A DNA stretch of 64,000 nt from Actinomyces radicidentis (GTDB taxonomy: Bacteria > Actinomycetota > Actinomycetes > Actinomycetales > Actinomycetaceae), in the NCBI RefSeq assembly GCF_001553565.1, contig NZ_CP014228.1:2728001-2792000 (forward strand). Direction: 5' to 3'. The position numbers were made by a program, and so were the translations under genes. The first letter of the stretch is position 1, and each line of letters begins with the position of its first letter. Shown one piece after another: positions 502 through 2,379 of the stretch. The notes under the pieces are model-generated. The model was given only the letters and a program-made list of their open reading frames with translations. It did not search any database and had not been told where the DNA came from.

Positions 502-2166
502 TCAGTCGAGGTAGTCGCGCAGGACCTGGCTGCGCGAGGGGTGGCGCAGCTTCGACATGGTCTTGGACTCGATCTGGCGGATGCGCTCGCGCGTCACACC
601 GTAGACCTTGCCGATCTCGTCGAGGGTCTTGGGCTGCCCGTCGGTGAGGCCGAAGCGCATGGAGACGACGCCCGCCTCGCGCTCGGAGAGCGTGTCGAGG
701 ACGGCGTGGAGCTGCTCCTGCAGGAGCGTGAAGCTCACGGCGTCCGCGGGGACGACGGCCTCGGAGTCCTCGATGAGGTCGCCGAACTCGGAGTCGCCGT
801 CCTCGCCGAGCGGCGTGTGCAGGCTGATGGGCTCGCGGCCGTACTTCTGGACCTCGACGACCTTCTCGGGTGTCATGTCCAGCTCGACCGCCAGCTCCTC
901 GGGCGTGGGCTCGCGACCCAGGTCCTGGAGCATCTGGCGCTGGACGCGGGCCAGCTTGTTGATGACCTCGACCATGTGGACGGGGATGCGGATGGTGCGC
1001 GCCTGGTCCGCCATGGCGCGGGTGATGGCCTGGCGGATCCACCACGTCGCGTAGGTCGAGAACTTGTAGCCCTTGGTGTAGTCGAACTTCTCGACGGCGC
1101 GGATGAGGCCGAGGTTGCCCTCCTGGATGAGGTCCAGGAAGAGCATGCCGCGGCCGGTGTAGCGCTTGGCGAGGGAGACGACGAGGCGCAGGTTGGCCTC
1201 GAGCAGGTGGTTCTTGGCGCGCTGGCCGTCGTTGGCGATCCAGTGCAGCTCGCGGCGGTACTTGGCGTCGAGGTCGTTGCCCTCGGTGGCCAGGAGGTGC
1301 TCCGCGTAGAGGCCGGCCTCGATGCGCTTGGCGAGCTCGACCTCCTGGGCCGCGTTGAGGAGCGCGACCTTTCCGATCTGCTTGAGGTAGTCCTTGACCG
1401 GGTCCGCGGTGGCGCCGGCGGTGACGACCTTCTGCGCGGGCTCGTCGCCCTCGTCGGAGTCGGAGACCGTGTAGGAGCCGTCCTTGGACTTCTCCCCGTT
1501 CTTCGAGCGCTTGGACTTCTTGCCGGCGGCCTTCTCGGCCTCCTCGCGGCGCATGCGGTCCAGCTCGCCGGTGAGGGCGGCGATCGAGGGCTGCATCTTG
1601 ATGCCCTTGATGACCCAGCCGCGGAAGATGTAGCCGTTCTGGGTGAGGAAGTCACGGGCGACCATCGGGGCGGAGTCGCCGACGACGAAGCGCGGGACCG
1701 GGCCGTGGCCGTAGGGGGCCAGGGTGATCGGGTCCTCCAGGGTGCCGTTGCCGGCGATCGGGAGGTTCTCGATCGTGGTGCGGGAGCGCACGTACAGCGT
1801 GGCACCCGGGGCCAGCTTGACGTCCTTGAAGGAGGCCGGGGTGTTGAAGGGCGAGCGCTTGGAGCCGTCGCCGTTCTCCTCGAGGGTCACGTCGAGGTAG
1901 TAGTCGCGCAGCTCGGGGGCCGGTCCCTCGTCCTCCGCGGCGTCCTCGGACCCGGCGGCCGAGTCCTCGTGGTCCTCGTCGTCCTCCTCGGAGTCCTCGT
2001 CCGAGTCGTCGTCATCGGCGGCGTCGTCCTCGTCGTCGGAGTCGTCGTTCAGGTCGACCTCGTCGTCCTCCTCCTCGTCGAGGTCGACGTCGTCGACCTC
2101 CTCGGCGGTGTCGTCGACGTCGTCGGTGCGCTGGGCGCGCTTCCGCGAAGTGGTGCTGGTGGCCAC
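502..2166 (-). CDS. sigA: Primary RNA polymerase sigma factor SigA with unusual N-terminal module
   Basis: The housekeeping sigma-70 factor directs core RNA polymerase to -10/-35 promoters. Region 1.2 begins at about residue 235 ([11 protein letters not shown]), followed by region 2 ([44 protein letters not shown]), region 3, and region 4 with the helix-turn-helix [20 protein letters not shown] near the C-terminus. The GTG start has AAAGGA upstream. The oddity is the first 230 residues: a run of Asp/Glu (about 15-80), then a compact segment (about 86-168) reading [36 protein letters not shown]. That pattern resembles the opening of secreted right-handed beta-helix polysaccharide lyases, not any sigma region. 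A Lys/Ser-rich linker (about 205-230) follows. The reading frame is uninterrupted. Its large antisense open frames are GC artefacts. Confidence 0.97.
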
Positions 2167-2364
2167 GGAGTTCCTTTCACGTGGGAGGACGGTTCAGGCG
2201 GCGGACCGGCGCCTCCGGGCACAGGTCACCACCGACGCTGCAGGCAACCGTGCAAGTGTACCGTTTATTCCCGCGCTCTCCTGCCGAGGCTCCGGCCGCC
2301 CGCGCGCACCTCGCTGGCCGGGCCGTCCCGCCGGGCGCTCGTCCCCTCGCGCCGCGGGTCCCGG

Positions 2365-2379
2365 TAGCCTGGCGGCATG
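2365..2379 (+). promoter_or_regulatory. Leaderless promoter -10 and start of prenyl synthase gene
   Basis: TAGCCT (2365-2370) sits 6 nt before the ATG at 2377 and there is no Shine-Dalgarno sequence, so transcription should begin at or next to the start codon. Confidence 0.55.

What the first reader, a model, noticed from the sequence alone, without database searches (positions are those of the whole stretch)
1663..1911. Secreted-enzyme-like beta-helix module inside the primary sigma factor
Residues ~86-168 of SigA read PFNTP...[11 protein letters not shown]...[23 protein letters not shown]. That order (PF-T, L-PG-TLYVRS, GNGT--PI-L-PYG-G-P) is the entry segment of right-handed beta-helix polysaccharide lyases, which are normally extracellular. 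It lies in frame between an acidic tract and sigma region 1.2. A carbohydrate-type fold grafted onto a housekeeping sigma factor could bind a ligand or an RNA polymerase partner. I know of no description of this.
Basis: partly seen in the sequence, partly recalled or inferred. Interest (0 to 1): 0.82.

Follow-up and report, generated by a model that had tools for sequence, protein, structure and literature searches.

The report
Sugar-enzyme module domesticated inside sigma factor
In every Actinomyces genome examined, the main protein that starts transcription carries an extra conserved domain related to the entry piece of secreted sugar-cutting enzymes, and it likely serves as a docking or gating part of the transcription machine rather than as an enzyme.

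Summary
Residues ~85-192 of the primary sigma factor SigA (window 1591-1914, minus strand) are a ~105-residue domain homologous to the N-terminal cap of right-handed beta-helix enzymes. A profile of SigA copies alone finds lacto-N-biosidase-type enzymes (E 8e-5, 1.4e-4), and an AlphaFold model built only from SigA copies has lacto-N-biosidases as its best four Foldseek matches. The closest relative is a stand-alone ~100-residue module of secreted GH29-type fucosidase proteins (profile-profile E 1.4e-21), not a whole lyase. All 49 genus genomes searched have the module, in frame with or next to the sigma core. SigA of 25 other genera of the family, read directly, lacks it. It is under purifying selection (dN/dS 0.23, against 0.59 and 0.83 in neighbouring stretches). 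Sigma region 1.1 was not detected in this family but is in many other actinobacteria. Another genus has apparently placed a secreted-type Ig-like domain in the same tail. Function is inferred: likely a folded replacement for region 1.1 at the downstream-DNA entrance of RNA polymerase. My six literature searches listed no earlier description.

The parts
502..2166 (-). sigA, primary sigma-70 factor, 554 aa, GTG start
   Evidence: Pfam regions 1.2, 2, 3, 4 and NCBIfam NF004561 (790.1 bits, cut-off 582)
1915..2130 (-). acidic tract, residues 13-84 (residues 1-87 have net charge -40)
   Evidence: pLDDT under 50 for residues 1-81 in the full-length model
1591..1914 (-). beta-helix-cap module, residues 85-192
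   Evidence: 58 of 108 positions invariant in 49 aligned SigA proteins (counted)
1525..1590 (-). conserved stretch after the module, residues 193-214, predicted helix (low confidence); beyond the part that aligns with the secreted relatives
   Evidence: dN/dS 0.118; helix at residues 195-213 and 195-217 in the two models, pLDDT about 40-63
1477..1524 (-). poorly conserved linker, residues 215-230
   Evidence: dN/dS 0.832
1405..1476 (-). conserved stretch just before region 1.2, residues 231-254, shared with SigA of other genera and with HrdB
1303..1404 (-). sigma region 1.2, residues 255-288
   Evidence: PF00140, E 1.9e-14
541..1206 (-). sigma regions 2 to 4, residues 321-542
   Evidence: PF04542, PF04539, PF04545

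Best explanation
SigA of Actinomyces contains a domain homologous to the beta-helix-cap module of secreted fucosidase-type enzymes, likely captured once by the ancestor of the genus, and it is predicted to act as a folded docking or gating element of RNA polymerase that would stand in for the undetected sigma region 1.1. Shown: the homology, the position between the acidic tract and region 1.2, presence in all 49 genus genomes searched, purifying selection, and no detectable region 1.1 in the SigA loci of this family that I examined. Inferred: a single capture, with a stand-alone fucosidase-associated module as the likely source. [quoted passage not shown] Inferred: there the module and the stretch after it would dock on polymerase (or on entering DNA) and hold the strongly acidic tail in the DNA path, so that free SigA does not bind DNA and the channel is kept clear until promoter DNA is loaded. 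No catalytic or sugar-binding role is expected, because only the cap is present and not the later coils of the helix.
For: Homology. Fold from SigA copies alone: mean pLDDT 77.1, 82-94 in ten-residue blocks over model residues 11-100 apart from one block at 75; lacto-N-biosidases best. Stand-alone nature of the relatives: module between two F5/8C-type domains, or as the last domain of the protein. Distribution: 37 of 37 genus genomes in the family sample, each match next to the SigA core on the same strand; 49 of 49 in the genus search, the 12 further ones read and in frame with region 1.2; 32 SigA loci from 25 other genera of the family without it (three are cut upstream by contig ends). Selection: dN/dS 0.232 module, 0.118 following stretch, against 0.589 acidic tract and 0.832 linker. 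Region 1.1: 0 of 70 family loci against 52 of 80 named actinobacterial loci (14 of the 52 seeded the model); Pfam names region 1.1 above its cut-off in one of three examples, just below it in one, and not in the third. Acidic tail net -28 to -50 in 33 of 34 Actinomyces SigA, -14 in one. Literature: the mycobacterial SigA N-terminal stretch moves between channel, beta lobe and HelD and is proposed to help load downstream DNA (passages of PMC11464796); removing the first 179 residues, but not the first 132, of M. tuberculosis SigA abolished initiation in vitro (passages of PMC10011835).
Against: No experiment and no complex model places the module on RNA polymerase. Region 1.1 lies at the extreme N-terminus in other actinobacteria, whereas the module follows the acidic tract, so it would be a replacement in kind, not in position. 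Other actinobacteria live without a detectable region 1.1: 28 of 80 named loci had none, of which at least seven are of this family, so a replacement is not demanded. VIA-align Z for 7v6m is only 4.5, in the range that can reflect a common arrangement. Two of the five models of the module were poor (mean pLDDT 39.9 and 37.1). The full-length model is poor (mean pLDDT 55.8). The SigA core protein tree does not recover the module-bearing genomes as a clean clade (five other loci fall inside, support 78), although a single clade is not rejected (AU p 0.344).
Confidence: 0.5

Rival explanations
1. The module is a docking site for an Actinomyces-specific regulator that tunes SigA, as MoaB2 does on the disordered SigA tail of Mycobacterium smegmatis.
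For: The M. smegmatis SigA tail is involved in MoaB2 binding, and MoaB2 inhibits SigA-dependent transcription (passages, including the abstract, of PMC11656743). 50 of the 58 invariant module positions are not invariant in the six secreted relatives, which suits a new protein surface.
Against: No partner was found here. RbpA, the one factor checked, is present in 39 of 39 relatives, 14 of them outside the genus, so it is not a special partner.
Confidence: 0.22
2. The module still binds a carbohydrate or nucleotide sugar and makes housekeeping transcription respond to envelope or sugar status.
For: The relatives outside SigA that I identified lie in fucosidase-type or beta-helix proteins, most likely secreted carbohydrate-active ones.
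Against: It has only the N-cap; in the enzymes the substrate groove is built by later coils (general knowledge of beta-helix enzymes, not tested here). Positions invariant in both the 12 SigA and the six fucosidase modules are eight Gly/Pro residues, which points to shared architecture rather than a shared binding site.
Confidence: 0.12
3. The module binds DNA directly, helping to load downstream or upstream promoter DNA.
For: Among the invariant charged module residues nine are basic and four acidic (counted); one other genus puts a Rho_N domain, and another a weaker SAP/Rho_N-like stretch, in the same tail.
Against: Overall module charge is near neutral (12 K/R, 12 D/E). Surface clustering could not be examined, as model coordinates were not among the files available to scripts.
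Confidence: 0.1
4. The module is a passive spacer, or the resemblance is chance.
For: Pfam does not recognise it.
Against: 49 of 49 genomes, dN/dS 0.23, profile-profile E 1.4e-21 to the fucosidase module.
Confidence: 0.06

Closest known systems
Stand-alone ~100-aa module of secreted GH29-type (PF01120) fucosidase proteins, e.g. Buchananella hordeovulneris P0121/P0122
   Same: Nearly the whole module aligns, including the closing helix region and the final G-W/F strand; 25-38% identity to the window's copy in six examples
   Different: There it sits in a multi-domain, apparently secreted protein beside F5/8C domains; in SigA it is part of a cytosolic protein, more conserved, and followed by an extra conserved stretch
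N-terminal cap of lacto-N-biosidases (6kqt GH136, 7v6m) and PL6 alginate lyases (7dmk)
   Same: Same motif order and predicted fold of the cap
   Different: The enzymes continue into a full parallel beta-helix with a catalytic groove; SigA stops after the cap
Sigma-70 region 1.1 (PF03979)
   Same: A folded domain in the N-terminal tail of a primary sigma factor
   Different: No sequence similarity; not detected in this family
Disordered SigA N-terminal domain of mycobacteria
   Same: Same place before region 1.2
   Different: Disordered by CD and NMR apart from about 30 residues at its end (passages of PMC11656743); no folded insert
SigA with an Ig-like domain in Ruaniaceae bacterium KH17 (P0124) and two unnamed sigma factors (P0125, P0127)
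   Same: A secreted-type domain placed in the SigA tail of another genus of the family
   Different: Different domain, no beta-helix module; apparently an independent event

Membership tests
Primary sigma-70 factor (RpoD/SigA) | Regions 1.2, 2, 3 and 4 | tested here: met
Sigma-70 region 1.1 (PF03979) | Match to region 1.1 in the N-terminal tail | tested here: not met
   no PF03979 hit; 0 of 70 family loci at E < 1e-3 with an actinobacterial model (weak values 0.015 for L085, 1.6 to 7.7 for three others)
Fucosidase-associated stand-alone module | Sequence homology over ~100 residues | tested here: met
   hhalign 101 columns, E 1.4e-21
Fucosidase-associated stand-alone module | Location in a secreted multi-domain enzyme | tested here: not met
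   the only Pfam domains of the protein are sigma regions; its first 84 residues are acidic and predicted disordered
Right-handed beta-helix lyase / GH136 enzyme | N-terminal cap | tested here: met
Right-handed beta-helix lyase / GH136 enzyme | Full parallel beta-helix of many coils | tested here: not met
   homology and the confident part of the model end by about residue 192, followed by a predicted helix and linker, then region 1.2 at 255
Right-handed beta-helix lyase / GH136 enzyme | Catalytic activity | not testable with these tools
   needs an assay; not expected without the later coils

The most novel reading that the evidence does not exclude
After losing region 1.1, the Actinomycetaceae turned the SigA tail into a domain-capture site. 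Different genera domesticated different folded domains there as new gates of RNA polymerase: a beta-helix cap from secreted sugar enzymes in Actinomyces, an Ig-like cell-wall-enzyme repeat in the KH17 lineage, and Rho_N/HeH-type domains in others. The essential initiation gate of bacterial transcription is thus replaceable by unrelated folds.
Probability: 0.4. Interest if true: 0.86.

Novelty: new variant of a known kind. Interest (0 to 1): 0.74.

Why it matters
The N-terminal tail of actinobacterial primary sigma factors is described as divergent and predicted unfolded (PMC11656743), yet part of it is needed for initiation in M. tuberculosis (PMC10011835). A whole genus of human and animal bacteria has a compact, strongly conserved, predicted folded domain there, related to extracellular enzymes. 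That gives a tractable handle on what the tail does: swapping region 1.1, the module, the Ig-like domain or nothing into one sigma factor would test directly whether the tail is a generic gate or a specific contact. It also suggests that secreted-protein domains can enter the core transcription machine.

Tried and rejected
Region 1.1 as identity of the segment: rejected. A recent copy from the same genome: the only significant match in the window's own genome is sigA itself; the next two have E 0.107 and 0.228. A module-bearing SigA outside the genus: none found. None of the matches outside the genus lies at a SigA place listed (that list is cut; for genomes beyond the cut I went by open-frame length). 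In the order sample of 396 genomes, 16 genomes outside the genus give 19 matches at 1e-9; I read 18 of the 19 and none is a sigma factor; the unread one, G010:C64, lies in a 1436-codon open frame. RbpA as a partner specific to the module: uninformative, present in 39 of 39. A nucleotide tree of the sigA core grouped low-GC genomes together, probably by base composition, and was set aside; the protein tree does not show the module-bearing genomes as one clade but does not reject it. Literature searches for a prior description; none of the listings showed one. Only PMC10011835, PMC11656743 and PMC11464796 were opened, as passages. Second AlphaFold job, full-length SigA: poor overall. Pfam gave no name for the Ig-like stretch of L085 nor for the tail of L094.

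Full report
What is there. SigA is encoded at window 502-2166 on the minus strand, 554 aa. Pfam finds sigma regions 1.2, 2, 3 and 4 and nothing before residue 255; the NCBIfam model NF004561 scores 790.1 bits against a cut-off of 582. The quoted motifs lie at the given coordinates. They are part of a longer unit, residues ~85-192, that stands between a very acidic tract and a conserved, probably helical stretch (193-214), followed by a variable linker, a conserved stretch (231-254) and region 1.2.

More than chance. A single copy of the segment finds, among 177635 distinct PDB sequences, four hits at E up to 10, three of which are beta-helix enzymes (0.012, 0.013, 0.16) and one of which is not (0.079). 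A profile from 12 SigA copies finds 7v6m and 6kqs at 8e-5 and 1.4e-4 and PL6 lyase 7dmk at 1.3e-3; the four weaker hits up to E 1 are two alginate lyases and two unrelated chains. With six secreted relatives added, the first two reach 8.1e-14 and 1e-11; unrelated chains appear only from 0.034 on. 6kqs is labelled GH136; that 7v6m is of the same family is from general knowledge.

Closest relatives. In 200 genomes of the family, the best matches outside SigA are long open frames, 30-41% identical in the first eight (best E 1.7e-13, 1.2e-11, 2.3e-9). I fetched twelve such loci. Nine were examined in detail: eight (L033-L038, L040, L042) carry the module as a separate ~100-residue unit in proteins with fucosidase-type sequence by eye; for the two scanned with Pfam, L033 and L042, these are PF01120 with F5/8C domains. 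L042 is itself from the genus (G174), so the genus also has a secreted-type version. L039, and by eye L043 and L044, are beta-helix proteins with the cap in front; L041 is a 114-codon open frame of unclear nature. In other families of the order, four loci (L207, L208, L209, L216) have the module as a stand-alone unit, in L207 and L216 at the end of the protein, and the others read run on into beta-helix-like sequence by eye. Profile-profile comparison of SigA modules with the fucosidase modules gives E 1.4e-21 over 101 columns. The two groups share the closing region and the G-W/F strand, so I take the stand-alone module, not a full lyase, as the source. The direction of transfer and a single capture are inferred.

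Distribution. All 37 genus genomes in the family sample have the module, each time next to the SigA core on the same contig and strand. All 49 genus genomes searched have it; the 12 not in the family sample were read and the module is in frame with region 1.2 in all 12 (in G562 the open frame ends before region 2). SigA core matches were found in 190 of 200 family genomes. I read SigA N-termini of 32 loci from 25 other genera: none has the module; L098, L106 and L107 are cut upstream by contig ends, with the stretch before region 1.2 visible. Most have Lys/Ala-rich and often acidic tails instead. Actinomyces tails mostly lack the Lys-rich part: 1-4 K/R before the acidic tract in 33 of 34, ten in L024.

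Selection. For dN/dS I used 526 of 561 pairs of 34 Actinomyces SigA genes (pairs outside core pS 0.02-0.55 were dropped): 0.232 for the module, 0.118 for the stretch after it, 0.589 for the acidic tract, 0.832 for the linker, 0.115 for the stretch before region 1.2, 0.065 for region 1.2, 0.303 for the spacer after it and 0.012 for region 2. In 49 aligned SigA proteins 58 of 108 module positions are invariant (counted); eight of these, all Gly or Pro, are invariant in the six fucosidase modules too. The architecture is shared; much of the rest has been fixed anew in SigA.

Region 1.1. A model built from 14 actinobacterial SigA N-termini matches 52 of 80 named loci (including the 14 seeds) and 0 of 70 family loci at E < 1e-3. 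The 70 loci represent 66 genomes; weak values were L085 0.015, L083 1.6, L013 7.1, L078 7.7. Of the 28 named loci without a match at least seven are from this family. Pfam names one of three such examples region 1.1 above its cut-off (E 1.5e-7), one just below (2.2e-4) and one not at all. So the family appears to have lost region 1.1, as have some other actinobacteria.

A second capture. It is 52, 47 and 44% identical to three repeats of one 559-codon open frame in the same genome, which has a signal-peptide-like stretch near its start and ends like a D-Ala-D-Ala carboxypeptidase by my reading. G012 is the only genome held for its genus. Of six proteins found with the domain, three are sigma factors: P0124 and the unnamed P0125 and P0127, 75 and 71% identical. 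In G135 (L102) the tail has a Rho_N domain above Pfam's cut-off (E 8.4e-8), and in G122 (L100) weaker SAP/Rho_N matches below it.

How it likely works. In mycobacteria the tail is mostly disordered; its last part (ordered from Phe140 in M. smegmatis) lies along the beta lobe, across the channel or around HelD, and is proposed to help load downstream DNA (passages of PMC11464796); part of the tail is needed for initiation (passages of PMC10011835); it takes part in binding MoaB2 (passages of PMC11656743). The Actinomyces module sits just upstream of the conserved stretch that precedes region 1.2; that this stretch corresponds to the mycobacterial one is my inference from position. I therefore favour a folded gate or dock at the downstream-DNA entrance, with the acidic tail as a DNA-like competitor. 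This step is inference; the rivals are a dock for an unknown regulator, direct DNA binding, or a kept sugar-sensing ability.

Verdict. A real, conserved domain architecture of a housekeeping sigma factor that none of my literature searches showed as described; the function is open but directly testable.

Noticed in passing
L085 (G012:C46), and P0124, P0125, P0127: SigA tail of the KH17 lineage carries an Ig-like domain 44-52% identical to repeats of a secreted carboxypeptidase-like protein in the same genome: apparently an independent domain capture.
   Followed up: partly
L102 (G135) and L100 (G122): SigA tails with a Rho_N/SAP-type domain (above Pfam cut-off in L102, below in L100) in two further genera of the family.
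   Followed up: partly
L123-L200, e.g. L129, L136: 52 of 80 named actinobacterial loci have a region-1.1-like N-terminal domain in SigA/HrdB, although one paper opened here calls actinobacterial tails predicted unfolded.
   Followed up: partly
L112/L024 (G195): One Actinomyces keeps a Lys-rich stretch before the acidic tract as well as the module, perhaps an intermediate state.
   Followed up: no
L042 (G174:C1:2099500-2107000): An Actinomyces genome with both the SigA module and a fucosidase-type protein carrying the stand-alone module.
   Followed up: partly
window 541-2367, plus strand: A 608-aa open frame runs antisense to sigA; probably a high-GC artefact.
   Followed up: no
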